This document shows, in pieces, positions 1,194 to 33,060 of a DNA stretch of 34,224 nucleotides. The DNA lies in assembly GCA_031284315.1 (NCBI GenBank), contig JAITAB010000029.1, forward strand, positions 1-34,224. The letters are read 5' to 3'. The notes below the pieces were generated by a model, which had not been told where the DNA came from, did no database searches, and saw only the letters and a list, made by a program, of their open reading frames with translations. The position numbers and the translations under genes are program-made. This DNA comes from Campylobacteraceae bacterium. Its GTDB lineage: Bacteria; Campylobacterota; Campylobacteria; Campylobacterales; Campylobacteraceae. Each line of letters starts with the position of its first letter. The stretch's first letter is position 1.

Positions 1194-1569
1194 TGGTGGA
1201 AGTGAGGGGAATTGAACCCCTGTCCAAAAACAGCCCCGACTTAATATCTACATGCTTAGAAGGATTGATTTTATCTTTGTTTTTGCTTCGCTCAATCCGC
1301 GAAAACTACGCAAAAACGCAGGCTTAAATTTCAATATTAGCGTCAGCCGCGCGCCAAATCAAGCTATCTGTTTTTTGAGCCTTGCGAAATCCGCTTAGAT
1401 AGCGTCCGCGGTGCAAAGCCTCCCTTTAAGGATAAAACTTACGCGACTTTTGCGTAAGCGGGAGCGAAATTTTTGTTATTTGCGTCTAAAATTAATGAAC
1501 TTTTTGCGCTCTGTTCAAAGCGGCATGCAATCAAGCCAAACCTGCTCCTGTCGAAGCCAAGCCACTCCC
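1194..1569 (-). ncRNA. ssrA: tmRNA (ssrA)
   Basis: Transfer-messenger RNA rescues stalled ribosomes and tags their peptides for proteolysis. On the minus strand the 5' end GGGAGTGGCTTGGCTTCGAC and the 3' end GGTTCAATTCCCCTC..CACTTCCACCA form the tRNA-like domain. GGGAGTG pairs with CACTTCC with one G-U pair, and CCA is encoded. The tag frame runs from a GCA resume codon at 1483 to a TAA at 1439 and encodes ANNKNFAPAYAKVA, close to the Campylobacter type tag ending in APAYAKAA as I recall it. The total length of 376 bases is normal for a one-piece tmRNA. The gene ends 12 bases from the trpA stop and lies on the same strand, downstream of it. Confidence 0.96.
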
Positions 1570-6257: not shown

Positions 6258-7355
6258 TTACGCGATCGCCTTAAATGCAAGCAGTTTGTTTCTGTAATGC
6301 TCGTATTGTTTTTGACGCGCTTTAATCTCGGCGGGCAAACCCTCGCTTATATCGTTTACCAATGCGTCAAACTTATCAAGTATTTTTACAATTCGTTCTT
6401 GCTTATGAAGCGGCGGAAGGGGGATTTTGAATTGAGAATAAGTCGAAATCCATTGTCTGGCATGATTTGAAGGAGCATATCTGATGCACTTCATTGCATA
6501 ATATATAAATCTAAAATTAACTTCGCCTTTAGGACTTAATATTTTCATGGCTGAGCTTTTAACCTTAAAAACAAAATCAACCCAATGAAACGATGTTGTA
6601 AAATCATCAAAAATAATCACAGGTTTTTGCCCGCTTGCTTGATACACTCCGTTTGTCTCATTGGTATAACCCAAAATAAATGTATCTCCTGCGGTCAAAA
6701 CGGGCGTATCAAACTTATCATTATAATTTGTGGATTTTACTATATATTTATCTGGACGCTCAAAGGCAATTACTTCTCCGAGCGTTGTCCATACAACTGA
6801 CGGATTGTTTAGCGAGAAAGTTAAAAGCTTATCGCGAAAAAAGCGATACTGCTTTTTTCGCGCTTGCAGCTCCGCTTGCAGCTCGGTAAACTTATCTAAT
6901 ATATTAACAATTTCTTGCTGAATTTCCAGCGGCGGAACAGGTATTAAAAGCTTTGCCAAATCGCTTCCATAAACATGAGGAACTCCGCTTCCTCTTTTGG
7001 AATTATGTATTTTTTCTTGCATATTTTTTAAAAAATAATATGTATATTTGGGAATTAACAGCTTATCGTCAGGGTTTACTGAAAACGAGTCAGATAAAAA
7101 TACAGGAATAGTCCAAAAATTAATAAATCCCGCATATGCTCCCGAAGCTGATACGGAAATAGTTTCGCCTGTTCTATTTGCAATATTGTGATAATAAGCG
7201 GGAGTTTGTCCGCCTGCGATAACGGGGATATCGCCAACAACCGTATCTTTTTGTGTGATAGTTGAACCGCGTTAAAATTCGCACACTTCGCCGAGCGGCT
7301 TAAATTCAACGCCGTTAGGGCAAAGTTTGGCGATTAACTTTTCTATTTTATTCAT
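6258..7355 (-). pseudogene. hsdS: Type I restriction specificity subunit HsdS, interrupted by a stop codon
   Basis: HsdS recognises the DNA target of type I restriction-modification enzymes. Read from an ATG at 7355, the frame gives MNKIEKLIAKLCPNGVEFKP, a typical HsdS start, then a TAA at codon 28 (7274-7272). After that it continues without a break for 337 more codons. The rest holds a first target-recognition region, the conserved repeat IPVPPLEIQQEIVNILDKF, a second recognition region, and IPLPPLHKQERIVKILDKF with a coiled-coil tail QKQYEHYRNKLLAF. The full frame would be 365 aa, close to normal. A shorter 254-aa product could start at the Met at 7022 but would lack most of the first recognition domain. 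No hsdM or hsdR is adjacent. It is a broken, orphan specificity gene lying between direct repeats. Confidence 0.85.
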
Positions 7356-22224: not shown

Positions 22225-22770
22225 TCATGGTTTAACGCTTTGATTGCCTTTTGAATTGTTAGCGGCTAAAGCTTGCGGCAGGGATATCTGAAACAGCGTC
22301 AATTTATCCTCCGACTGATAAGAGACGATATACGAATTTCTATTCTCGTGAATGCGAAAAAGCGTTACATTGTCTAAAAGTCTGTCCGATTTGACGCGCT
22401 GCACGCTCTCATAGGTAAGCGGGATATTTTCTATCTGGCGCGACTCTATCCTAAAAAGCGAATTATCCTTCACAAAGTAAGCCACCTGAGGGTTTATCAT
22501 CGCATGAATGGAGTTTTTGGTATTTAAGCGGAAAATGTCAAAATCCCCGCCGTTTGTTATATTTGAGGCGGCGTAAAGGTCGGTTTTTGAAAAAATATCG
22601 TTATAAAAAAGCCTTATAATCTTCTGCTCTTTTGTATCCCTGTCATATCGCTTGGAGTTAATCTCATTGCTCTTTTGCATGGTATCTATGGCTTGGTACA
22701 TGTAAACGGCGATAATGGAAAATATGGCTATGGAGATAACTACTTCTATGAGCGTAAAAGCTCTCTTCAC
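22225..22770 (-). CDS. gspJ: Minor pseudopilin, GspJ-like
   Basis: The 181-aa product has a type III prepilin signal: MKRA, then FTLIEVVISIAIFSIIAVYM, with Glu5 of the mature form present and Ala at -1. A beta-rich C-terminal domain follows, with FDIFRLNTKNS and YFVKDNSLFRIESR. GspJ caps the pseudopilus with GspI and GspK. The J assignment rests on length and on its place directly after the I-like gene. It is the last gene of the secretion operon and overlaps gspI by ATGA. Confidence 0.75.
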   Translation of the reverse strand: MKRAFTLIEVVISIAIFSIIAVYMYQAIDTMQKSNEINSKRYDRDTKEQKIIRLFYNDIFSKTDLYAASNITNGGDFDIFRLNTKNSIHAMINPQVAYFVKDNSLFRIESRQIENIPLTYESVQRVKSDRLLDNVTLFRIHENRNSYIVSYQSEDKLTLFQISLPQALAANNSKGNQSVKP

Positions 22771-23195
22771 ATCTCAGCCTTTATCTCGTATCCAAGCGTA
22801 TTTGCGCCATTCATGGAAGCGTTTATTTTATTGATGATAAGAACCGCCTGCGGAATTTCGTCTATCGTCCGCTCTATCTCTTTGCTGTCCGCCAGATTCA
22901 TATTAAACGCCTCTTCGCTTGCACATGTGAGGTTTTGCTCTTTCAGCGCGGTTATAAGTTTATCGTCTTTTATCACAAATCGCGATTTTATGGCGTCATA
23001 AAGATTTGTATCCGTATCTTCGCTGCATAGATTATTTAAAATAGCTACGGAGAAAAGCATATTCGCCTGATTTTTGGTTTTCGCGTATTGTATGATTTTG
23101 GAACTGTTAGAACTTACGCTCAAAAGCCCAAGACCTGCGGTAAATACTATAACCACCGCTATCAAAACTTCCACAAGCGTAAACGCCTTAATCAT
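22767..23195 (-). CDS. gspI: Minor pseudopilin, GspI-like
   Basis: The 142-aa product starts MIKA, then FTLVEVLIAVVIVFTAGLGL, a prepilin N-terminus with Glu5 and Ala at -1. The remainder is a short globular domain with two cysteines (Cys58 and Cys91) that could form a disulfide in the periplasm. Its size and its position between gspE and gspJ fit GspI. The start overlaps the end of gspE by 8 bases. Confidence 0.72.
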   Translation of the reverse strand: MIKAFTLVEVLIAVVIVFTAGLGLLSVSSNSSKIIQYAKTKNQANMLFSVAILNNLCSEDTDTNLYDAIKSRFVIKDDKLITALKEQNLTCASEEAFNMNLADSKEIERTIDEIPQAVLIINKINASMNGANTLGYEIKAEM

Positions 23196-24708
23196 CTTTG
23201 ATTCCTATCCTTATCGCCTCGTCAAGCGATATTTTACCCTCGTATAAAAGCGATTTAAGTCTGTGCGAAAGAAATACCATACCGTTTTTTTTCACAAAAG
23301 AGCGGATTTGATAATCATTTGTCGTGGTTTTCAGTATTGTTTTTATATCGTCGTTCATGATTAACAGCTCTCCTACTGCCTGTCTTCCTATATATCCGGT
23401 ATAGCCGCATTTTTTGCAGCCGTTAGCTTTATAAATGACGGTATCTTTTTTCAGCGAAAACTGATTTGCGTAATCTTCGGCTATCTTGTCTTCGCTTTTG
23501 CAGTGCGGGCAAAGCAGCCGCGCCAATCTTTGAGCCAGCACGGCAAGCAGCGTGGAAGATATCAAAAACGGTTCTATCTTCATATCCACAAGCCTTGTAA
23601 TAGCTGCTGTGGCATTGTTTGTGTGCAGCGTTGATAATACTAAATGTCCCGTAAGCGCCGCCTGCGTAGCTATGGACGCGGTTTCATTGTCGCGTATTTC
23701 GCCCACCATGACTATATCAGGATCTTGTCTCAATATGGAGCGGAGTCCCGCCGCAAAGGTAAGTCCGACTTTATTGTTTACCTGAATTTGATTTATATTG
23801 TTTGTTTTATATTCAACGGGGTCTTCTATCGTAATGATATTTTTTTCAGGCGAAGCAAGTTTTTGCAAAAATGAGTGCAGAGTGGTTGATTTGCCGCTGC
23901 CTGTGGGTCCCGTTACCAAGATAATGCCATGCGAATGCTGCAAAACGCCCCTTAGCTCATGTATCAAATCATCAGTAAATCCGAGTTCCAAAAGCGAAGG
24001 TATCTGCGCAGAATCCATCAAAATACGCATAACAACCCTCTCGCCGTAATATACCGGCAGTATGGAGACGCGGATATCAAGCGTGCGTCCAGCTATCTTT
24101 ATCTGCGTTCTGCCGTCCTGCGGAATGCGTTTTTCTGAAATGTCAAGATTTGATATGACTTTGATACGGCTGATGACGAGATTCAGGATATTTTTTTCAA
24201 GCTCTATATGTTTTGTCAAGACGCCGTCTATACGAAAGCGTATTTCGCCCTTAAACTCATGCATCTCTATGTGAATATCGCTTGAGCGTTTTTTGATAGC
24301 CTGATAAAAAAGCGAATTGACAAATTTGATAATCGGCGCGGACTCTTCGGAAGTCAAAATGTCGCCCGAATTTCTCAAAAACTCCGTCAAATTCATATTT
24401 TCATCAACGCCCGCTTCTTCTTCGGCGTTTTTATCTATGGAGCCAAGTTCCTTATCCGTCCTAAGCTCCAAAAATTTATTCAAAAGTTTTTCGTACGACT
24501 CTTCGTCCAAAAATACAATTTTATATTCCGTCTTTTGTTTGGAAAGATACTCAAAAGCTATATCCATACGCTCTTCGGTGATACATGCGCATATAGTATC
24601 GTCCATTTTTGAAAAAAGTACATAATTTTTCAAAGCTATATTAATATCTTGGGATTCAACCTCAAAAGGTTCAAGATTTATGTCATGTATGTATTCTATG
24701 CCGCTCAT
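23188..24708 (-). CDS. gspE: Type II secretion ATPase GspE
   Basis: GspE is the cytoplasmic hexameric ATPase that powers pseudopilus assembly. The 506-aa product has an N-terminal domain (about 1-110) that docks on GspL in other systems, then the catalytic core: Walker A GPTGSGKS (267-274), Asp box ITIEDPVEY, Walker B-type DPDIVMVGEIRD with Glu337, and His box TGHLVLSTLHTNNA. The zinc-binding tetracysteine is present (Cys400, 403, 431, 434 in CPHC and CKKC), a mark of GspE rather than PilT. The acidic linker around 85-105 is longer than usual. It follows gspD by 8 bases. Confidence 0.96.
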   Translation of the reverse strand: MSGIEYIHDINLEPFEVESQDINIALKNYVLFSKMDDTICACITEERMDIAFEYLSKQKTEYKIVFLDEESYEKLLNKFLELRTDKELGSIDKNAEEEAGVDENMNLTEFLRNSGDILTSEESAPIIKFVNSLFYQAIKKRSSDIHIEMHEFKGEIRFRIDGVLTKHIELEKNILNLVISRIKVISNLDISEKRIPQDGRTQIKIAGRTLDIRVSILPVYYGERVVMRILMDSAQIPSLLELGFTDDLIHELRGVLQHSHGIILVTGPTGSGKSTTLHSFLQKLASPEKNIITIEDPVEYKTNNINQIQVNNKVGLTFAAGLRSILRQDPDIVMVGEIRDNETASIATQAALTGHLVLSTLHTNNATAAITRLVDMKIEPFLISSTLLAVLAQRLARLLCPHCKSEDKIAEDYANQFSLKKDTVIYKANGCKKCGYTGYIGRQAVGELLIMNDDIKTILKTTTNDYQIRSFVKKNGMVFLSHRLKSLLYEGKISLDEAIRIGIKDD

Positions 24709-24716
24709 GAAATATC

Positions 24717-26663
24717 CTATCTATGCAGTAAATTATCCCAATACGCATCGCTTCCTACCACTATATCGCTCTCAGCGGCAAGAGTATTTCCCGTTCTTTT
24801 TTGAAGCTCGTCTTGAAGCTGTTTGCCGAAAAACTCCTGCGCTTGGTCAAGTTCGGCCAATTGCACTTTCAACTGCGAAAGTTCACTGCTCGAATTGACT
24901 ATATAAGGGGTCAAAACTATCACGATATTGACTTGGTCATTGACATCGGTAGAGTGCGTAAATAGATTCCCCAAAATCGGAATATCCCCCAAAAGCGGCA
25001 CTTTATCGCTGCTTTTAGTGTTTTTGTTGCGTATAAGTCCTGCAACTGTGATGCTCTGTCCATGCTGGGCTATGTTTGTCGCGCTTACTTCTCTTTTTGT
25101 CGTAGTCGGCATGCCGCTGCTTCCGCCGCTTCCTTCCAAAACATCTTCTATAACGGCTTCTATCTGGAGCGTAACTTTCCCGTCATTTGCGATTCTTGGT
25201 TTTACCTTCAAAGTCAAGCCTATATCTTCTCTTGTGTATGTATTTCGCGTCAAATCAGTCGTACTGTCGGAGTTTGTCGCGCTTGTGATGATAGACTGCG
25301 TTTGTCCCACATATATTTTGGATTCTACATTATTTACGCACAACAGCGAAGGTTCGGAGACGATATTTGCAGCGCCGTTTGTTCTTAGAAAATCTATGGA
25401 CGCGCCCAAAGCCAAACCTGCCTTTATATCTTCAAGGCTGATAACGGAGCTTAATACGGAAGAGAGCGGCAGAGCGCTTCCTCCCATGTTCATAGCAAAT
25501 GTATAGAGTCCGTCCGATGTCGCTTTTCCGCCTTCAAGTCCGTATTTTATGCCTATTCTTTGCGATGCGCTTTCGCTGATTTCAACTATTTTTGCCCTTA
25601 CGTAAACCTGTTTTTGCTCTTTGTCAAGTTCGCTGATGATATCCTTTATTACTTCATAATCTTTCTGCGTTGCCAAAACCACTATGGAGTTGCTCGCTTC
25701 GTCCAAAGAGAGTGTGGGTTTGTTTGTATCGGCGGCTCTTACGCTATTTTGTATGATGGTTTGGTTGCCGAATGCACGCGAAGAGGGAGCGGTCGCATTT
25801 AAAACGTTAGAAGAGACAAGTTCGCTGATGATTTTATAGACATTTTTCGCTTCGGCGTTGTTGAGCTGTATCACTCTCGTAACCATTTGAAACGACTCTT
25901 GCCCTTTGTCCAAATTGGCTATGATATCTTTTAACTTTTCTATATTTTCCGATGATCCCACGGCGATAATTCCATTATCAGCTCTGTTTTCGTATAACGA
26001 TATCCTCTCTCTTTCTATCTTTTCATTAAAGACGCTTTTTGTAATTGACTGCAAAATGGGGAAAATCTGCCCTATATCGGCATTGTACATTTTGATAAAC
26101 GCCACATCGGAAGCTACATTCTGCTCCATGAGCGCTATAACCTTTCGTATGGTGTCTATATTTTTCGGGAAATCCGTTATTACAAGCATGTTATTTTCGC
26201 GGGAGGGTATAAATTTGGCGGAGATAGAAGCAAGATGCCTTATTTTATTGATAACCTCATCAACATTCAAGCCTTTTATCCTTATCGCCTGCGTAACCAT
26301 TTGCGTATAACCCTGAGACCTGCCGACTACGGGCAGATTGTACTGCGCGACCATATTGCTTCTTACTATCTCCATGTATGGACCATGATCTACCAAAGTA
26401 AAGCCCTTTTGCGCAAGCGCGGATTGCAGTATGGATAAGACTTCCTGCTTGGTTACGGGCTTTGTGGAGATAAATTCTACCTTGCCCGGTATCGCCTCAT
26501 GAAAGAGTATATCTTTATTTAAAACATTTGAGACAAGCCTCGCAAAATCCGTAATTTCCAAATCTCTGAAATTTATATCAACTGTTGCGTTAGCATCCTC
26601 AATGCTTTGAGCATGCAAAGAGAATGCCAAAAGCATACATGCGGCTATTTTAATAAATCTCAT
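24717..26663 (-). CDS. gspD: Type II secretion secretin GspD
   Basis: GspD forms the outer-membrane channel. With ATG at 26663 (AGAAGGAG 7 bases before it) the product is 648 aa with signal peptide MRFIKIAACMLLAFSLHAQS. Domains in order: N0 (about 25-100), three N-type ring domains holding VDEVINKIRHLAS, MYNADIGQIFPILQ and LNNAEAKNVYKII, and the secretin barrel from about 355, with VVLATQKDYEVIKDII, ITVAGLIRNK and the signature VIVLTPYIV. There is a polar C-terminal tail but no obvious lipid anchor and no pilotin gene nearby. A longer frame with seven extra codons overlaps gspC more and lacks a signal start. Its start lies inside the 3' end of gspC. Confidence 0.95.
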   Translation of the reverse strand: MRFIKIAACMLLAFSLHAQSIEDANATVDINFRDLEITDFARLVSNVLNKDILFHEAIPGKVEFISTKPVTKQEVLSILQSALAQKGFTLVDHGPYMEIVRSNMVAQYNLPVVGRSQGYTQMVTQAIRIKGLNVDEVINKIRHLASISAKFIPSRENNMLVITDFPKNIDTIRKVIALMEQNVASDVAFIKMYNADIGQIFPILQSITKSVFNEKIERERISLYENRADNGIIAVGSSENIEKLKDIIANLDKGQESFQMVTRVIQLNNAEAKNVYKIISELVSSNVLNATAPSSRAFGNQTIIQNSVRAADTNKPTLSLDEASNSIVVLATQKDYEVIKDIISELDKEQKQVYVRAKIVEISESASQRIGIKYGLEGGKATSDGLYTFAMNMGGSALPLSSVLSSVISLEDIKAGLALGASIDFLRTNGAANIVSEPSLLCVNNVESKIYVGQTQSIITSATNSDSTTDLTRNTYTREDIGLTLKVKPRIANDGKVTLQIEAVIEDVLEGSGGSSGMPTTTKREVSATNIAQHGQSITVAGLIRNKNTKSSDKVPLLGDIPILGNLFTHSTDVNDQVNIVIVLTPYIVNSSSELSQLKVQLAELDQAQEFFGKQLQDELQKRTGNTLAAESDIVVGSDAYWDNLLHR

Positions 26664-27468
26664 ATTCAAACTCCTTCTTTTCATTGTTTCTCATAACTTC
26701 CAATTTCACCTTGCTGTAAGATTTGGCGTTGCCGTAAATCTCAAGAACGCTTGAGTAATTATCAAGCTTGATTCCATTGAAACTCTGTATTATATCGCCC
26801 GAACGCAATCCAAGTTTTGCAAAGGGGGAATTTCTATTTATGCTAAGCACCCTAAAGCCCTCCAGTTTTCCGTCTTTCATGACCTCTTTAAAGCCTATAT
26901 TTTTAAATACCGAATCAGGATTTGCCAAAAATTCATCTATCTCGTCTCTTTTCAAAACATTCATGTATTCGCCGTCATTTGCCTGCAATTTTACGCCGCC
27001 GCCGAATTTATTATTCGCGGGAATATTTACGGCGGGCGAAATTGCCGCGCTTTCGGTAAGCGTTACCCAAAAATCGCTGCCATTTTCCCTGAGAAAAACT
27101 CCGTTTGGCTTTATCTCGCCGACAATATATTGCTTGTATCTATCCTCTGTTTTCAAAACTTCCGAAGAAGCGCCGTCCGAAATGACCGCGTAAGCTTTTT
27201 TGCCGTTGTTTTCCTTATATACAGCCAAAACCTTCAAACTGCTTATCTGCGAAGCTTGGATATTTGAAGCCGCGCCGTTTTGGGATACATGCGAAAAGGC
27301 AGATGCCGTGTAAGCGTTAAAATTTATGACATTTCCGCTGCCGCTTGGCTCTACGCCGCTTTTGGGCAAAAAAATAAAAAGTATTAAAGATATGCTCTTT
27401 GCTATGGCTATAAAAATTAAAATCTTAAAGATAACGCTCAATATTTTGTTGTTAAAAAGACGATTCAT
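26650..27468 (-). CDS. gspC: Type II secretion inner-membrane protein GspC
   Basis: GspC bridges the inner-membrane platform and the secretin. The 272-aa product has a single membrane helix at about 12-34, a Ser/Asn-rich linker, a homology-region domain (about 75-145, with LKVLAVYKENNGKKAYAVIS and KTEDRYKQYIVGEI), and a C-terminal PDZ domain (about 187-272, with NSPFAKLGLRSGDIIQSFNG). Many GspC proteins use the PDZ domain in substrate choice. It lies in mid-operon here, between the N-like gene and gspD, rather than first as in the classic order. Confidence 0.9.
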   Translation of the reverse strand: MNRLFNNKILSVIFKILIFIAIAKSISLILFIFLPKSGVEPSGSGNVINFNAYTASAFSHVSQNGAASNIQASQISSLKVLAVYKENNGKKAYAVISDGASSEVLKTEDRYKQYIVGEIKPNGVFLRENGSDFWVTLTESAAISPAVNIPANNKFGGGVKLQANDGEYMNVLKRDEIDEFLANPDSVFKNIGFKEVMKDGKLEGFRVLSINRNSPFAKLGLRSGDIIQSFNGIKLDNYSSVLEIYGNAKSYSKVKLEVMRNNEKKEFEYEIY

Positions 27469-27976
27469 ATACCAATTCTCCGTCTATTTCTTTAAACTCT
27501 CTATATATGCTCGGATATTTCTGCTTAAAATTCTCATGCGGCTTTAAAACAAGATAAATCTTTTTGCCGTACATGTTATAACTGCCGCTGATTTTTCCAA
27601 ATTCCCCGTTTAAATTAAGCCACAATTTTATCGGATAAAACGGCGTAAATTTCACCTTCGCGCTCTCAATCGCGCCTGGCGCAAAACTTTGAAATTTTTT
27701 TGCAATTTGAATATTTTCAAACTCTACTTCATTATACAAAATAAACGGCGCGGCTTTTATCCCGCCTATTTGTGCGGCTTCATCGCCAAAATACGACACA
27801 TGCGCGTTTTTCACGCTAAATACGCCGAGAAATTCGCTTAAAGTTTCATTGCCAAGTACGATTTTATACTCATTAAGTTTATGTTCCATAAGAAAATAAA
27901 AATTCTCTTTTGGCAAAAACAAAACCGTGATGAAAATAAATAAACCGCACCAGAAAATATATTTTAAAAATTTCAT
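27452..27976 (-). CDS. GspN-like membrane-anchored protein
   Basis: The 174-aa product has one N-terminal membrane helix (about 5-22) and a periplasmic beta-rich domain. Segments such as GIKAAPFILYNEVEFENI, FTPFYPIKLWLNLNGEFG and ISGSYNMYGKKIYLVLKP recall GspN, which is an accessory and not always needed part of type II systems. The assignment leans on position before gspC and on general shape. It overlaps both neighbours (4 bases with the M-like gene, 17 with gspC). Confidence 0.55.
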   Translation of the reverse strand: MKFLKYIFWCGLFIFITVLFLPKENFYFLMEHKLNEYKIVLGNETLSEFLGVFSVKNAHVSYFGDEAAQIGGIKAAPFILYNEVEFENIQIAKKFQSFAPGAIESAKVKFTPFYPIKLWLNLNGEFGKISGSYNMYGKKIYLVLKPHENFKQKYPSIYREFKEIDGELVYESSF

Positions 27977-28356
27977 TTTGTTATTTCCGCTCCAAGAGAT
28001 ATTTTATCTTCCGCTTCGGTCAAAATCGTAAATTTTTCTATCTCGAAGCCGTCTGTAAGCATCTTTCTAACCATATCGTTTACCTGCATGCGCGTCAAAG
28101 AAGAGACTTTTATCTCAAAATTTTTGCCCTTGTCATTGACATTTCCCGCGCCAAAAACTGTGCCAAGCCGCTCTTTCAACTCTGTTTTATTCCATGTTTT
28201 TTTTGAAAATACTATCTTTTTTGCATTCTCTTCCAGCGCAAAAAGAGCTTTATCTTTTTCGGCTATTTGATTTTTCAACCGTGAGACATTAAATGATAAA
28301 ACCAGCAAAACCGCCGCCAGTATGGATATTAAAATCAAAGGATTTATCTTATTCAT
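27973..28356 (-). CDS. GspM-like inner-membrane assembly protein
   Basis: The 127-aa product has one membrane helix (about 8-22), a short coiled coil (about 23-48, LKNQIAEKDKALFALEENAK), and a small alpha/beta domain with FEIKVSSLTRMQVNDMVRKM that resembles the ferredoxin-like periplasmic domain of GspM. GspM partners GspL in the inner-membrane platform. The short length and its place right after the L-like gene support the call; sequence similarity is too weak to be certain. It overlaps the upstream gspL-like gene by 8 bases. Confidence 0.6.
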   Translation of the reverse strand: MNKINPLILISILAAVLLVLSFNVSRLKNQIAEKDKALFALEENAKKIVFSKKTWNKTELKERLGTVFGAGNVNDKGKNFEIKVSSLTRMQVNDMVRKMLTDGFEIEKFTILTEAEDKISLGAEITK

Positions 28357-29371
28357 AGCGCAGCTCCATTTTAATATCTTCAGCGCCGTCTTGAAATTCG
28401 CTTACGGTAAAATACCTCTGAAAATAGCTTTTCACGGCTTCGCCTCTGCTTTTATCGCTCACATGCAGCGTAAGAGAAATATGCGTTTTTGACGCTTCCA
28501 AACTTTTGAAATACTCCCCTTCCAAAAAAGAAAATTTGAAAACTTCGCTGATTTTTTCCCTTATCTTTTTTTGTTCCATGTTGATTTTATCGTACTGCTT
28601 TAAAAGCGCGTTTAACTGAATTTCTGTGGAGGGCATAGAGTATTGTTTTAAAATCTCCTCTTTTTGGCTCTCTTTGGAGCTTGACATGTTTGAGAGGTAA
28701 AATAGTTCCGCAAAAAGGAGTATATTTAAAAAAATCAGCGCGTATATGATGCCTTTCAACGCGCCCTGTTTTTCGTATATGCGGTTGAATTTTCCAAGAG
28801 TGATTGTAATTTTGGAAGGTTTTAACGACTCTAAAACGCTCTTTATATCAACATGTTCTTTCACTAATGAGAGCGGCGCTTTTATGACTTTGCCCTCCCG
28901 TATAATCAGAGCGTTTTTCTCGTCTATTTTTATATCATGCGCACTGTTTGAAAATTCCGTCTGCGCAAAATAGACTTTTCTTATAACGGCAGGTTTAACG
29001 CCCGCCGCGTCAAGATATTCAAGAATGCTTTTCGCGTCATACGCAAAAAACAAAAATTTACCGTTTTGTTTTATCACTTTGTATGAATAATCGCCCTTTG
29101 GTATAAAGCCCTCAAATATGGAAGGAGCGTATTCTTTTGCCCGAAAAGCGTATTTTACGGGAAGCGTTTGGGTTTTTGTCCAGTAAAATTTGGGCGATAG
29201 GATAATATCAAACGCATCTATGCCGACCACGCTCATGCGCTTATCGTCTATAAAAACTATTTTATGGTCGTAAGTTTTCGCAAACTTATCGCCGTAAAAA
29301 CGCTTCAAAATATTTGATGCATGCGCTAAAGCATTTCGCAGGCGTTCAAAAAACTGTTTCAATATAACCAA
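28349..29371 (-). CDS. gspL: GspL-like inner-membrane platform protein
   Basis: The 340-aa product has a cytoplasmic part of about 205 residues, one membrane helix at about 206-227, and a periplasmic part with coiled coil and a ferredoxin-like domain (ISLTLHVSDKSRGEAVKSYF). This is the GspL layout: a cytoplasmic actin-like domain that holds GspE, and a periplasmic domain that pairs with GspM. The start is TTG at 29371, overlapping the previous gene by 26 bases. A second TTG three codons later is equally possible. Confidence 0.72.
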   Translation of the reverse strand: MVILKQFFERLRNALAHASNILKRFYGDKFAKTYDHKIVFIDDKRMSVVGIDAFDIILSPKFYWTKTQTLPVKYAFRAKEYAPSIFEGFIPKGDYSYKVIKQNGKFLFFAYDAKSILEYLDAAGVKPAVIRKVYFAQTEFSNSAHDIKIDEKNALIIREGKVIKAPLSLVKEHVDIKSVLESLKPSKITITLGKFNRIYEKQGALKGIIYALIFLNILLFAELFYLSNMSSSKESQKEEILKQYSMPSTEIQLNALLKQYDKINMEQKKIREKISEVFKFSFLEGEYFKSLEASKTHISLTLHVSDKSRGEAVKSYFQRYFTVSEFQDGAEDIKMELRYE

Positions 29372-30248
29372 CTTTCCTTGACTTTATATCATATAAAAAA
29401 TTAAGAGACATTGTCTGTTTCATATAAAAAAGATTTATACTGCACACTATTCTGGGTGAAAAAAAACCCACATTCAAAGCTTTCAGCTTCTCTTTGCCTT
29501 CATTTGGGATATTAAGTTCATCGTATGAGTTCAGTAACTCCCCCCGATTTAATGAAATTAAATTATACTCTTTTTTAATTAAAATCAGTAAAGGTTCTTT
29601 TATATAATTAAAATCAATATCTTCTCCGACAAAACCCACGATATCTTCCCATGGAATGTTATATATCCGCGCATCTCCGCCTTTTGCCTCAAAATAATCC
29701 AAAAGATACAGAAAAGACTCTTTTGAGTTTATGCCTCCATCGTCAAACCTGTAATCCCTCAAAGCCGCCTCGCTCGCGTATGTCCTCTCATTTTTATCGG
29801 CATCAACGGCATCAAGCAGTATGGAGAGGAAAAAATTCGCATTTACGACTTGATATTCCTGCAAAAGGCTTTGGAGGAGATTGTATAAAGGCTCGTTTGT
29901 TTCGTTATTGCTCAAAATAAGGTTATTGACGTTGATAACGCCGCCGCCGGATTTTATATCTATCATGATACTCATATCGCCGTTATTTGTGCCAAGAGCT
30001 ATGGGAAGCCCCGTTATGACAGAGAGCGTTTGCGCGTCATTTATGTTTTGGGAGTTTTTCTGTAAAATCGCCAAAGTGTCAAGAAAGCTTTTGTTAAGCT
30101 GCACAAAAAGGGCGTTTTGGCTTGAATCGTCAAAATATTTTTGTGAGATATCCACACTTTTTAAAATAAGTAAAGAGAGCATCATGATAAGTCCTATCAC
30201 GGTGAGAAGGACTATTCCGCGTTTTTTTGACTTATGCATAATTTTCAT
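29346..30248 (-). CDS. gspK: GspK-like minor pseudopilin
   Basis: The 300-aa product has a prepilin-like N-terminus KSKKRG, then IVLLTVIGLIMMLSLLILK, without Glu at mature position 5, which is normal for GspK. The large C-terminal domain contains GGVINVNNL and an acidic LLDAVDADKNERTYASEAALRDYRF block, which corresponds to the calcium-binding alpha domain found in GspK. GspK sits at the pseudopilus tip. The start overlaps gspF by ATGA. Confidence 0.82.
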   Translation of the reverse strand: MKIMHKSKKRGIVLLTVIGLIMMLSLLILKSVDISQKYFDDSSQNALFVQLNKSFLDTLAILQKNSQNINDAQTLSVITGLPIALGTNNGDMSIMIDIKSGGGVINVNNLILSNNETNEPLYNLLQSLLQEYQVVNANFFLSILLDAVDADKNERTYASEAALRDYRFDDGGINSKESFLYLLDYFEAKGGDARIYNIPWEDIVGFVGEDIDFNYIKEPLLILIKKEYNLISLNRGELLNSYDELNIPNEGKEKLKALNVGFFSPRIVCSINLFYMKQTMSLNFLYDIKSRKVGYIETVF

Positions 30249-31459
30249 GAGATATTGATTGAAAATATCGGCAGCAGCATAGAAGTTACGATAAGCCCGA
30301 TGATGCCTCCTACTATCAGCATCAGCGCAGGCTCCAAAAGCGACAAAAACAGGGCTATTTTGTCTCTGTTTTCTTCAAAATAAAGCTCCGACATGTTTTG
30401 CAAAACCATAGAAACTTCGCTTGTCTCTTCGCCCAGTGTGATAGCCTGCACAAAAGAGTTATCCAGCTCAAAACCGCTTTTCAAAAGCGCGGCGGAGAGG
30501 CGCGAACCTTCCACGACTTTCAAGGAAGCCTTTTCAAATACATCGGCGATAACGCTGTTTTTCAAAATGCCTGAACCAAGCCTTACGGTTTTTACGAAAG
30601 GCACGCCCGATCTTATCAAAACGGAAGCGACATAAGTAAATCTTCCAAGCTCTGAGGATTGTATTATTTTGCCAAAAAACGGCAGTTTTAACATAAAAAA
30701 ATCAAATCTATATTTTACTTTCGGGCTTGTTTTCAAAACAAATCTAAACGCAAGCGCAAATAAAAACGCGCCAACGGCAAGAAAAAGCCAATTGCTTGAC
30801 ATCCAGTTCCCAAAAGCTATCACCAACTGCGTAATTTTGGGAAGTTCTTGATCCATCTGTTCAAATATGGAGCTGATTTTGGGAACTATGTAAGTTACCA
30901 TGAAGCCTACCATAAAACATGAAACCACCAAGATAAAAAGCGGATACGCAAACGCGTTTTGCACCTGCTTTTCCAGCCTCTCCTGCTCTTTCAAAAAGCG
31001 CGACAATTCCAGCAATATCTCCGTCAAAATGCCGCTGTCTTCCGACACTTTTATGGATTGTTTGTAAAAATTGGGCAGAGTTATGACATTCTGATTTTCA
31101 AGCGCGAAGTAAAAATTTTTTCCCTCGTCAAGCGAAGTTTTGATACTTCTTAAAAAAAGCAGCATTTTTTTGTTTTTCGCGTATTGATTGGACGAGAGCG
31201 AAACGGCATCTACTAAAGATATTCCGGACTTCAGATATATGCTTATGTCGCGGCTGAATATGGAAAGTTCGCCCGATGAAATTTTGTGCTTTTTTTTGAA
31301 GCTAAATTTGCTTAAAAATGTAAAACTGTCCTCTTTTACCTTTTTGTATATGATATTTTGGGATTTGAGCCTGCGTTTTGCGTCTTCCAAATTTGAAGCT
31401 TCTATTTTGGAGCTTACTTTATTGCCCAGCGCATCCAATCCCGAATATTTAAATATCAA
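30245..31459 (-). CDS. gspF: Type II secretion inner-membrane protein GspF
   Basis: GspF is the polytopic platform protein that links the ATPase to pseudopilin assembly. The 404-aa product has two homologous cytoplasmic T2SF domains (about 65-170 and 270-375) and three membrane helices (about 171-193, 223-242, 375-398). Diagnostic pieces are FSRDISIYLKSGISLVDAV, VQNAFAYPLFILVV, LIRSGVPFVKTV and the C-terminal LLEPALMLIVGGIIGLIV. It follows the H-like gene by 2 bases. Confidence 0.95.
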   Translation of the reverse strand: MIFKYSGLDALGNKVSSKIEASNLEDAKRRLKSQNIIYKKVKEDSFTFLSKFSFKKKHKISSGELSIFSRDISIYLKSGISLVDAVSLSSNQYAKNKKMLLFLRSIKTSLDEGKNFYFALENQNVITLPNFYKQSIKVSEDSGILTEILLELSRFLKEQERLEKQVQNAFAYPLFILVVSCFMVGFMVTYIVPKISSIFEQMDQELPKITQLVIAFGNWMSSNWLFLAVGAFLFALAFRFVLKTSPKVKYRFDFFMLKLPFFGKIIQSSELGRFTYVASVLIRSGVPFVKTVRLGSGILKNSVIADVFEKASLKVVEGSRLSAALLKSGFELDNSFVQAITLGEETSEVSMVLQNMSELYFEENRDKIALFLSLLEPALMLIVGGIIGLIVTSMLLPIFSINIS

Positions 31460-31461
31460 CT

Positions 31462-31995
31462 TTACCGACCTCTTGCTTCAAAATGCTGTTTTTCCAAAAA
31501 CTCCTGCGCGTCCGCAACGCTTCCAAACACCCTTCCCTCTTCCAGATAATTTTCAAACAAATACGCCCTGTTTTTGTACTCCAACACAAGCTTATCGCTG
31601 CTGCCGTTTGGATAAATATCCATTCTAAAACAGACTTTCTCTTTTTTGTACTCATTCACATGATAATCGTCAAATTCCGCTTTTTCTACTCTCCTGCCGT
31701 AATGATAATAAGCGTTTACCGTACTTCCTTTTTCAAAAATATCAAGCGTCATGTTCTTATCTTCGCCATTTACCAAGACTCTGCACTCATTGCAGTTGTC
31801 TATGCATCTTAACGAAATGCGGTTTTTTCCGCCTCCGATTTTCGCAAGATAGAGATTTAATTTATCTATTTTTACGCTCTCGTTTTCAGGAGAGCTTATA
31901 GAAAAATTTTGAGCAAATAAACCGTAGGAAATTACTATCAGCAGCAAAACCAGCAACAGTTCAAACAGCGTAAACGCGCCCCTTATTCTTGACAT
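31462..31995 (-). CDS. gspH: Pseudopilin, GspH-like
   Basis: The 177-aa product has prepilin N-terminus MSRIRGA, then FTLFELLLVLLLIVISYGLF, with Glu5 and Ala at -1. The globular part contains three clustered cysteines (RCIDNCNECRVLV), unusual for a pseudopilin, and aromatic strands. It directly follows gspG, with a 13-base overlap, where GspH usually lies. The H label is positional and the fold is not confirmed. Confidence 0.65.
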   Translation of the reverse strand: MSRIRGAFTLFELLLVLLLIVISYGLFAQNFSISSPENESVKIDKLNLYLAKIGGGKNRISLRCIDNCNECRVLVNGEDKNMTLDIFEKGSTVNAYYHYGRRVEKAEFDDYHVNEYKKEKVCFRMDIYPNGSSDKLVLEYKNRAYLFENYLEEGRVFGSVADAQEFLEKQHFEARGR

Positions 31996-32408
31996 TTGCT
32001 AAAATATATATCCTCGTCATCGCTATCGCCGCCCTCTTTTTTATCCCTTCCCAAAGAGACGATATCAAAACTCCCGCCGTCGGTTATATACACATATTCG
32101 CTTCCCCATGAATCTTTCGGCGCAGATTTGGCGGAGAGATAGCCGCCGTTGGGATAATTTTTGTATTTTGACGAATCGGGGTTTACCACAAGAGCGCCGA
32201 GTCCTTCGTCTAAGGGCGGATAATTTCCAAAATCAGCCCTGAACATGTCAAGCGATTCGCTTATGGTTTTCATCTGAATACAGACCAAATCTCTTTTTGC
32301 CCTTTCGCTCTGCCCGACAAGATTCGGCACGACAATAGCCGTAAGAAGCCCCAAAATCATAATAACTATCATGAGTTCCATGAGCGTGAATGCTTTTCTC
32401 AACTTCAA
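31983..32408 (-). CDS. gspG: Major pseudopilin GspG
   Basis: GspG is the main subunit of the pseudopilus. The 141-aa product begins MKLRKA, then FTLMELMIVIMILGLLTAIV, followed by VPNLVGQSERAKRD and the family pattern FGNYPPLDEGLGALV and PKDSWGSEYVY. The acidic GGDSDDEDIYF tail corresponds to the calcium-binding end of GspG. The start is TTG with AAAAGGA just before it. As first gene of the operon it would be made in the greatest amount, which suits the major subunit. Confidence 0.95.
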   Translation of the reverse strand: MKLRKAFTLMELMIVIMILGLLTAIVVPNLVGQSERAKRDLVCIQMKTISESLDMFRADFGNYPPLDEGLGALVVNPDSSKYKNYPNGGYLSAKSAPKDSWGSEYVYITDGGSFDIVSLGRDKKEGGDSDDEDIYFSKCQE

Positions 32409-32428: not shown

Positions 32429-32434
32429 ATTATA
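32429..32434 (-). promoter_or_regulatory. -10 box of the secretion operon
   Basis: TATAAT read on the minus strand lies about 21 bases before the gspG TTG, in ATGATATAATCCG. This would give a very short leader. No other promoter-like gap exists within the twelve-gene operon. Confidence 0.55.
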
Positions 32435-32607
32435 TCATAAAAAGCGGCTTTTTCAAATTTAGAATAATGAATTGTAACTTTAATTATTTTTAATTAACAA
32501 TATTTTCTTAAAAATTTGCGCCGCATGAGAGTTAAAACTTTGCTTTTCCTTGATTTTAGCGTTGAAATTAATTAAAATATCGCTTGTTAAAAAACCAAAA
32601 AAATCCC

Positions 32608-33060
32608 ATGAGACAAATTTTCAAATTACTGTAAGCGCGGCGTTATTCGGCAGTTTGGCTTTGGCTGACCTTTTTGACAAATCTCGTAAAGCTTACAAAG
32701 AGAGCGATTACGAAAAAGCGGCGGAGTTTAAAAAAAGACTGCGATGACAGAGGCATTTTTAGCTGTTCCAGATTGGGAGAACTGTATAAAAGAGGCAAAG
32801 GCGTTACTTTGTGCTGCGTTATTTTGGGAGATACGCATAAAAACAGCAAAGGCGTTGGGCAAAACTTTTCCAAAGCCGCAGAATTCTATAAAAAAGACTG
32901 CGATGACGATATTTCCAAGAGCTGCGGCAATTTGGGAGCAATGTACGAACATGGTCTGGGCGTAAAAAAAGATATAAACAAAGCCGTTAAATACTACGCT
33001 AAAGCGTGCGGCATAAGAGTGCAAGAAGAGTGTGAAAATCATGCGAGATTGAAAAAATAA
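32608..33060 (+). pseudogene. Frameshifted Sel1-repeat secreted protein
   Basis: Three frames carry pieces of one Sel1 protein. ATG 32608 gives MRQIFKLL then a TAA at 32632. The next frame reads a signal peptide VSAALFGSLALA and SRKAYKESDYEKAAEF, then ends at a TGA just after an A7 run at 32730-32736. The third frame continues DCDDRGIFSCSRLGELYKRGKG, FSKAAEFYKKDCDDDISKSC, GNLGAMYEHGLGVKKD and NKAVKYYAKACG to 33060. The internal repeat FYKKDCDDD shows how the A7 region should read and implies two missing bases. Such cysteine-rich Sel1 proteins are numerous in Helicobacter and relatives. Either a pseudogene or, less likely, a slip-controlled gene. Confidence 0.75.

What the first reader, a model, noticed from the sequence alone, without database searches (positions are those of the whole stretch)
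22225..32408. Twelve-gene type II secretion operon with a rearranged order in a Campylobacterota genome
The order G-H-F-K-L-M-N-C-D-E-I-J differs from the common C-D-E-F-G-H-I-J-K-L-M-N order, most junctions overlap, and there is a single visible promoter. Type II secretion is little studied in this phylum. L, M and N are highly diverged, and gspO and a pilotin are absent locally. The exported substrates are unknown.
Basis: partly seen in the sequence, partly recalled or inferred. Interest (0 to 1): 0.55.

Follow-up and report, generated by a model that had tools for sequence, protein, structure and literature searches.

The report
Type II secretion operon in Campylobacterota
This is a complete protein-secretion machine of a well-known kind, in a gene order shared with many relatives in its phylum, found in one little-known genus of a family whose other examined genomes lack it; what it secretes is unknown.

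Summary
The twelve genes are present, open and mostly overlapping at 22225-32408 (- strand). They encode a type II secretion system (T2SS), not a pilus. GspG and GspD pass curated T2SS cut-offs; GspE and GspF stay under theirs but score T2SS models above pilus models; GspC's best models are GspC. The predicted L protein has both GspL domains (Z 10.5 and 8.8; PilM 6.6). Relatives of M and N weakly hit T2SSM and GspN models. The genome has a separate MSHA/Cts-type locus and one prepilin peptidase elsewhere. The 'rearranged' order is the commonest complete one among the 80 nearest named loci (17 of 21 with all twelve genes; 10 of 14 outside the genus). Near-full-length GspD occurs in 102 of 298 sampled genomes of the order, 19 families, although a 2016 survey reported no T2SS in 98 epsilonproteobacterial genomes. 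In the window's own family it is confined to one genus: 11 of 14 genomes, against 0 of 139 others. Genes scored show purifying selection. Substrates were not found: no GH18 chitinase or S8 protease in the genus. Ordinary in mechanism; mildly interesting for its distribution and as a T2SS little noticed in this phylum.

The parts
31983..32408 (-). GspG, major pseudopilin (TTG start; a second in-frame TTG 6 bases downstream)
   Evidence: TIGR01710 equivalog 128 bits, cut-off 88.85; PF08334 2.2e-27; C-terminal stretch aligns with E. coli GspG
31462..31995 (-). GspH-like minor pseudopilin
   Evidence: prepilin-like N-terminus AFTLFE; weak TIGR01708 0.0047; syntenic homologues
30245..31459 (-). GspF inner-membrane platform
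   Evidence: TIGR02120 268 bits (cut-off 424), best of the models hit, PilC 204; PF00482 1.2e-44
29346..30248 (-). GspK-like minor pseudopilin (no Glu at +5)
   Evidence: PF21687 weak: 0.035 for the window protein, hit at E <= 1 by 5 of 26 aligned proteins; RGIVLLT N-terminus; +5 never Glu in 47 scored K proteins, 4 more without the motif
28349..29371 (-). GspL: cytoplasmic actin-like remnant, TM helix, periplasmic ferredoxin-like domain
   Evidence: AlphaFold mean pLDDT 90.1, pTM 0.59; EpsL cytoplasmic domain Z 10.5, EpsL periplasmic domain Z 8.8, PilM 6.6
27973..28356 (-). GspM-like assembly protein
   Evidence: position between L and N; T2SSM hit by 2 of 42 aligned proteins, best 1.2e-4; the window protein itself does not hit
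27452..27976 (-). GspN-like: N-terminal helices plus beta sheet
   Evidence: TIGR04411 GspN hit by 11 of 43 aligned proteins, best 2.5e-4; the window protein itself does not hit; pLDDT 92.8
26650..27468 (-). GspC with C-terminal PDZ
   Evidence: NF041515 GspC_delta 1.7e-28 (100 bits, cut-off 150), TIGR01713 4.7e-19 (69 bits, cut-off 101.6); PDZ_2 2.3e-12
24717..26684 (-). GspD secretin (N0, secretin_N repeats, secretin)
   Evidence: TIGR02517 361 bits over cut-off 351; PilQ 156, MshL 120, both under their cut-offs; profile positions 22-575 align with a solved T2SS secretin
23188..24708 (-). GspE ATPase
   Evidence: TIGR02533 554 bits (cut-off 630), PilB 465
22767..23195 (-). GspI-like minor pseudopilin
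   Evidence: AFTLVE N-terminus, PF07963 0.0086; syntenic homologues
22225..22770 (-). GspJ-like minor pseudopilin (GTG start)
   Evidence: AFTLIE N-terminus, PF07963 4.6e-7; syntenic homologues
32429..32456 (-). promoter-like site before gspG
   Evidence: TTGAAA-16-TATAAT, 11 of 12, extended -10; consensus match only

Best explanation
A complete single-locus T2SS. Proteins exported by Sec or Tat and folded in the periplasm are pushed through the GspD secretin by a pseudopilus: GspG shaft, H-I-J-K tip. The pseudopilus is built by the GspE ATPase on the F-L-M platform, and GspC (with PDZ) couples platform to secretin. Pseudopilins are matured by the one prepilin peptidase found in the genome, on another contig, presumably shared with the separate MSHA/Cts-type locus. 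Shown here: gene content, families, order, the L fold (predicted), purifying selection, distribution. Inferred from the known family: that it secretes, how the parts work together, and the shared peptidase. Within the family the genes are confined to one genus, and the substrates are unknown.
For: Families. L fold. M and N through relatives. GspK without Glu+5. Higher bit scores to E. coli GspD/E/F than to the C66 locus or HofQ/B/C: (D 135 against 84.7 and 73.2; E 384 against 343 and 285; F 134 against 105 and 118). Separate pilus-type locus in the same genome. Peptidase. Conserved synteny. dN/dS 0.03-0.19 in 11 genes against L063. Genus-restricted.
Against: GspE, GspF and GspC stay below their curated equivalog cut-offs. 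By percent identity GspE is nearer the C66 ATPase (46.1% over 386 columns) than E. coli GspE (43.0% over 465), though the bit score is lower. H, I and J are identified only by prepilin N-termini and position. The window's own M and N hit no T2SS family. The periplasmic L match (Z 8.8) stands only a little above PilO and an unrelated ribosomal protein S6 variant (7.3 each). The outgroups sit on very long branches in the GspE tree, so that tree does not decide the type. No pilotin of two families and no substrate were found. Nothing here shows expression or secretion.
Confidence: 0.94

Rival explanations
1. A pilus or DNA-uptake machine of the MSHA/Cts kind, misnamed as T2SS.
For: The subunits are homologous across the superfamily; Campylobacter Cts proteins are called components of a type II secretion system in print (reference titles and table passages seen), and in a C. 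ureolyticus paper the heading 'Type II secretion system' covers MshL and MshM (passage).
Against: The genome already has such a locus on another contig: a 520-aa fused PilM/PilN-like protein, a PilO-like protein, an MshL-like 535-aa secretin, CtsE/F-like proteins (these labels are mine, from sequence and layout; no family scan was run on them). The operon here has GspC, a GspK-like protein and GspL instead. T2SS models win for D, E and F.
Confidence: 0.04
2. A decaying or cryptic T2SS no longer in use.
For: No substrate or pilotin found; 3 of 14 genomes of the genus gave no GspD match, one of them 91% complete. Against the more distant L067, M and N reach dN/dS 0.38 and 0.43 with dS above 1.3.
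Against: All twelve frames are open in the window, and all twelve genes were found in 8 of 9 other loci of the same group (L062-L069; J of L067 is cut by the contig end); the ninth, L071, is cut by its contig end. dN/dS is 0.03-0.20 in the comparisons with L063 and L062.
Confidence: 0.08
3. The T2SS entered this genus by horizontal transfer rather than being kept from the ancestor.
For: 0 of 139 other family genomes have it. In the D+E tree the genus joins L070 (98) and then an Arcobacteraceae-rich clade (94), not Sulfurospirillum arcachonense, whereas RpoB joins it to Sulfurospirillaceae (99/96).
Against: The same gene order is spread over the order, and the T2SS of Sulfurospirillaceae fall in more than one place in the D+E tree, so repeated loss fits as well. 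The trees differ in taxa and use one or two genes.
Confidence: 0.4

Closest known systems
T2SS of other Campylobacterota (Arcobacter, Aliarcobacter, Arcobacteraceae, Sulfuricurvum, Sulfurimonas, Sulfurimonadaceae, Sulfurospirillum, Helicobacteraceae and an unnamed marine MAG: L083, L094, L116, L117, L121, L126, L127, L132, L134, L139)
   Same: Twelve genes in the identical order G-H-F-K-L-M-N-C-D-E-I-J; in L139 with larger gaps around K.
   Different: GspD best-segment identity 38-40%; other flanking genes.
T2SS of the window's own group (MAGs Cd354_bin15, Iy174_bin11, Gx481_bin170 and others, L062-L069, L071; contig coordinates agree for at least L062, L063, L065, L068, L071)
   Same: Same operon and order; GspD best-segment identity 62-92%.
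   Different: Beside different neighbours: an aconitase-family (leuC-like) gene in the window and L071, Sel1 genes in L062/L063, an aldo/keto reductase in L064 and L065 and, by ORF size and position, L066 and L069.
E. coli K-12 Gsp (C-D-E-F-G-H-I-J-K-L-M-O)
   Same: Homologous D, E, F, G, C; K-type N-terminus.
   Different: Order; gspO in the operon; no gspN listed; the -1 residue of G, H, I, J is Gly in E. coli and Ala here.
MSHA/Cts-type locus on contig C66 of the same genome (L059)
   Same: Homologous secretin, ATPase, platform protein.
   Different: Fused PilM/PilN-like and separate PilO-like protein, shorter secretin, no GspC- or GspK-like gene seen (labels mine).

Membership tests
Type II secretion system | GspD secretin with N0 and repeat domains, scoring over the T2SS cut-off | tested here: met
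   TIGR02517 361.2 over 351.35; PF21305 N0 5.5e-16; Secretin_N in 3 stretches
Type II secretion system | GspC linking platform and secretin | tested here: met
   NF041515 1.7e-28, TIGR01713 4.7e-19, PDZ; all GspC models below curated cut-offs. A GspC-profile match next to GspD in 77 of 77 named loci that have both, of 80
Type II secretion system | GspE and GspF closer to T2SS than to pilus models | tested here: met
   554 against 465 bits and 268 against 204 bits, both below the T2SS equivalog cut-offs
Type II secretion system | Major pseudopilin GspG | tested here: met
   TIGR01710 128 over 88.85
Type II secretion system | Four minor pseudopilins H, I, J, K | tested here: inconclusive
   Four prepilin-like proteins in place; K lacks Glu+5 as in E. 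coli; individual identities of H, I, J rest on position
Type II secretion system | GspL with cytoplasmic and periplasmic domains in one chain | tested here: met
   Predicted model: Z 10.5 (1yf5, 156 aligned, 3.3 A) and 8.8 (2w7v, 74 aligned, 2.5 A)
Type II secretion system | GspM and GspN | tested here: inconclusive
   Only relatives hit: T2SSM in 2 of 42, TIGR04411 in 11 of 43; PF01203 T2SSN none in own genome
Type II secretion system | Prepilin peptidase in the genome | tested here: met
   One PF01478 match, 1.2e-13, in a 242-aa ORF with two CxxC pairs, contig C7
Type II secretion system | Pilotin of the PulS/OutS or AspS type (not always present) | tested here: inconclusive
   PF09691 and PF16549 give nothing in own genome; other pilotins not tested
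Type II secretion system | Secretes folded periplasmic proteins | not testable with these tools
   needs mutants and exoproteomics
Type IV pilus / MSHA | PilM-like protein with separate PilN and PilO; PilQ/MshL secretin over cut-off | tested here: not met
   L is one chain with both GspL domains; the secretin scores PilQ 155.8 (cut-off 284) and MshL 120.2 (cut-off 250) against 361 for GspD

The most novel reading that the evidence does not exclude
Campylobacterota carry a little-noticed phylum-wide T2SS subtype. Its marks are the order G-H-F-K-L-M-N-C-D-E-I-J or variants around an L-M-N-C-D-E core, very diverged L/M/N, a cytoplasmic GspL domain matched over only about 160 of some 238 EpsL residues, and pseudopilins mostly with Ala before the cleavage site. 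A published survey did not report it. Within Campylobacteraceae one genus (termite-gut associated, if my unconfirmed recollection of its MAGs' source holds) kept or acquired it to export proteins that Campylobacter proper does not export this way.
Probability: 0.45. Interest if true: 0.5.

Novelty: new member of a known kind. Interest (0 to 1): 0.35.

Why it matters
A 2016 genome survey states that T2SS were absent from 98 epsilonproteobacterial genomes (passage of PMC4793230). Here a GspD with a near-full-length match (E <= 1e-100) is found in 102 of 298 sampled genomes of the order, in 19 families, and in the 80 named loci looked at it sits beside gspC wherever both are present (77 of 77). 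The survey's own 98 genomes were not re-examined here, so this shows that the order as now sampled has T2SS, not that the survey misread those genomes. Profile models used in such surveys may need Campylobacterota L/M/N/K (inference). The contrast inside one family (11 of 14 genomes in one genus, 0 of 139 outside) gives a natural comparison for asking what the secretion system is for.

Tried and rejected
Pilus/MSHA reading: rejected on model scores, the L fold, and the presence of a separate pilus-type locus. Local rearrangement: rejected, as the order is common among relatives.

Direct family hits for L, M and N in the window: none. For the M relatives the most frequent hit was SecD-TM1 (4 of 42, best 0.0073), which I take as membrane-helix noise. 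hhalign of the M and L alignments against single E. coli GspM and GspL: no significant match. PDB sequence search with L, M and N profiles: no T2SS match. Fold search with N: best Z 8.9 to JlpA, then BamA, porin and LptA-like sheets. I treat this as a common arrangement, not kinship.

Substrate search: no GH18 in 153 family genomes. S8 peptidases occur in 63 of 153 but in 0 of 14 of this genus, the reverse of what a T2SS substrate would show. Flanking genes: housekeeping or Sel1-repeat genes, not shared across the genus. Genes recurring beside T2SS loci elsewhere were not seen in the window.

GspE tree with E. coli/C66 outgroups: very long outgroup branches, not used as proof. First RpoB tree: one row (G003) was evidently wrong (branch length 5.6) and the script then stopped with an error. 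In the rerun I left out 4 of 30 rows: G003, G007 and G015 (long branches) and G258 (incomplete). D+E tree: 2 of 46 chosen loci skipped for lack of a full E.

Host: the MAG code names suggested termite guts to me from memory. No text I saw confirms it.
Full report
What is there. Twelve open frames on the - strand, 32408 down to 22225, nine of eleven junctions overlapping. Curated models name G and D as T2SS proteins over their cut-offs. They rank T2SS first for E, F and C, but under cut-off. H, I and J show only prepilin-like N-termini (H also a weak GspH hit), K a weak GspK match, and L, M and N no T2SS match of their own. A promoter-like site with 11 of 12 matches precedes gspG.

The diverged subunits. 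I used relatives from named loci to build alignments of L (55 rows), M (42) and N (43), window included. The L model (mean pLDDT 90.1, pTM 0.59) matches the cytoplasmic domains of EpsL and PulL (Z 10.5 each) and, in the same chain, the periplasmic domains of EpsL (8.8), PulL (8.2) and XcpY (7.9). PilM reaches 6.6; for the periplasmic part PilO and a ribosomal protein S6 variant reach 7.3, so that half is the weaker argument. Foldseek ranks GspL chains first, E 2.8e-5, and PilM from 2.6e-3. The cytoplasmic match covers about 160 of some 238 EpsL residues, so that part looks shortened. M: the T2SSM model is hit by 2 of 42, best 1.2e-4. N: the GspN model TIGR04411 is hit by 11 of 43, best 2.5e-4, while PF01203 finds nothing in the genome. 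The N model (pLDDT 92.8) is N-terminal helices plus a beta sheet with no convincing solved relative. M was not folded.

Not a pilus. Of five PF00437 matches in the genome four pass the cut-off: two strong ones (448 and 438 bits, on C66 and in this operon) and two weaker ones (C36, C55). There are two secretins, again on C66 and here. The C66 locus has the layout of an MSHA/Cts system: fused PilM/PilN-like 520 aa, PilO-like 213 aa, secretin 535 aa, AAA-like protein 273 aa, TPR-like protein 266 aa, ATPase 584 aa, platform protein 418 aa (labels are mine). MSH systems in Epsilon-proteobacteria are in print (passages of PMC6668835). By bit score the operon's D, E and F match E. coli GspD, GspE and GspF best, ahead of HofQ/B/C and of the C66 proteins; by percent identity E is slightly nearer the C66 ATPase over a shorter stretch (46.1% over 386 against 43.0% over 465). 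Profile positions 22-575 of GspD align with a solved T2SS secretin at E 1.4e-100; the best PilQ is 2.1e-44.

Other parts. The only PF01478 match is in a 242-aa protein on contig C7, behind coaBC- and uppS-like genes (gene names mine). PulS/OutS and AspS pilotin families gave nothing in the genome, which does not exclude another pilotin. The GspG C-terminus (SLGRDKKEGGDSDDEDI) aligns with the E. coli stretch that I recall as the calcium site.

Order. With profiles built from the window and these loci, 21 hold all twelve genes, and 17 of these have exactly the window's order. Seven are of the window's group; ten of the other fourteen have it too: Arcobacter, Aliarcobacter, Arcobacteraceae, Sulfurimonas (two), Sulfuricurvum, Sulfurimonadaceae, Sulfurospirillum, a Helicobacteraceae bacterium and an unnamed marine bacterium. 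The other four keep K-L-M-N-C-D-E and invert or move G, H, I, J or F. Of 45 loci with both K and E, 35 show K-L-M-N-C-D-E unbroken. The counting rule drops overlapping frames, so some complete loci were scored incomplete (L063, L111 and L119 show the full order).

Distribution. With the window's GspD, 157 of 298 genomes of the order match at E <= 1e-40, the own genome included. Some of these are short secretin-only matches that may be other systems. At E <= 1e-100, where the listed matches run nearly full length, 102 of 298 remain, in 19 families. In the window's own family 11 of 153 match, all in the window's genus (11 of 14); 0 of 139 outside it. The genus is unnamed here. The nearest named records are MAGs titled Campylobacteraceae bacterium. 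I recall their accession series as termite-gut MAGs, but no text that I saw confirms this; PMC9137090 mentions Campylobacterales MAGs from termites without these codes (passages).

History. The D+E tree (45 rows) makes the group one clade (100), sister to L070 (98), then with an Arcobacteraceae-rich clade (94). RpoB (26 rows, 4 of 30 left out) joins the genus to Sulfurospirillaceae (99/96), and holding the family together is mildly rejected (AU p 0.043). Transfer and differential loss both remain open.

In use. Against L063, dN/dS is 0.03-0.19 in 11 genes; N was not scored. Against L062 it is 0.055-0.20 in 11 genes, J being saturated. Against the more distant L067 most genes are saturated; H, F and E give 0.06-0.14, M 0.38 and N 0.43.

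Literature. Abby et al. 2016 state that T2SS were absent from 98 Epsilon-proteobacteria genomes (passage). The passages seen of Denise et al. 2019 list new T2SS taxa without naming this group; its Figure 4 could not be seen. Genome papers do name Gsp genes in the phylum: Nautilia PV-1 GspCDEFLM (PMC10092268), single Gsp genes up-regulated with sulfur in Sulfurovum indicum (PMC10045233), a partial set in the Zeitz epsilonproteobacterium (PMC4674564). A vent-symbiont paper reports T2SS in all five of its symbiont genomes; I did not check which of these are epsilonproteobacterial (PMC7580541). Passages only were read of all these. My searches for T2SS with Campylobacter/GspD, Epsilonproteobacteria (25 of 45 papers listed), Campylobacterota, Sulfurimonas, and Arcobacter plus Sulfurimonas listed no title on protein secretion by a T2SS in this phylum. 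That is a statement about those listings only.

Substrates. Not identified. GH18 is absent from all 153 family genomes. S8 peptidases are in 63 of 153 but in none of the 14 of this genus. Only these two families were tried. Sel1-repeat genes lie beside the operon in the window, L062 and L063, but were not seen beside it in the other loci of the group, so they are at best a weak lead.

Verdict. A genuine, intact T2SS in an order common among its relatives. The finding is ordinary in mechanism. The interest lies in its restriction to one genus of its family and in showing that T2SS genes are widespread in an order for which an earlier survey reported none.

Noticed in passing
L062-L141, pseudopilin N-termini; window G, H, I, J: The residue before the prepilin cleavage site is mostly Ala, not the textbook Gly (recalled), in G 28 A/14 G, H 25 A/17 G/3 S, I 40 A/7 G/7 S, J 41 A/8 G/6 S; in K it is 29 G/15 A/3 S (9 proteins without the motif left out). 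All four of G, H, I, J in the window have Ala; K has Gly.
   Followed up: partly
window 32550-33060 (+): Small Sel1-repeat gene with a signal-peptide-like start, divergent from the operon, whose frame appears broken between two overlapping ORFs. Larger Sel1 genes lie directly downstream of gspJ in L062 and L063.
   Followed up: partly
L059 (contig C66) 6866-15749: MSHA/Cts-type pilus or competence locus between pta-ackA-like genes and an era-like GTPase gene (labels mine, no family scan).
   Followed up: partly
L034 15668-18040; L092 12487-12954: In other families, a 790-aa lipoprotein-like gene (right after gspJ in L034; family in 5 loci) and a 155-aa lipoprotein-like gene (7 loci, of which L033 and L073 are the same contig) recur near T2SS loci: possible cargo or pilotin candidates, no clear Pfam match.
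   Followed up: partly
family survey: S8 peptidases in long frames (many about 1000-1300 aa) are common elsewhere in the family (63 of 139 genomes outside the genus) and absent from all 14 genomes of the T2SS genus.
   Followed up: no
L158 and other rpoB loci: RpoB places this genus with Sulfurospirillaceae (99/96) rather than with the other Campylobacteraceae genera it is classed with.
   Followed up: partly
window 6258-7022 (-): A type I restriction specificity subunit (Methylase_S 3e-25) among housekeeping genes; no R or M subunit was looked for.
   Followed up: no
window 1194-1569 (-): tmRNA gene with tag ANNKNFAPAYAKVA.
   Followed up: no
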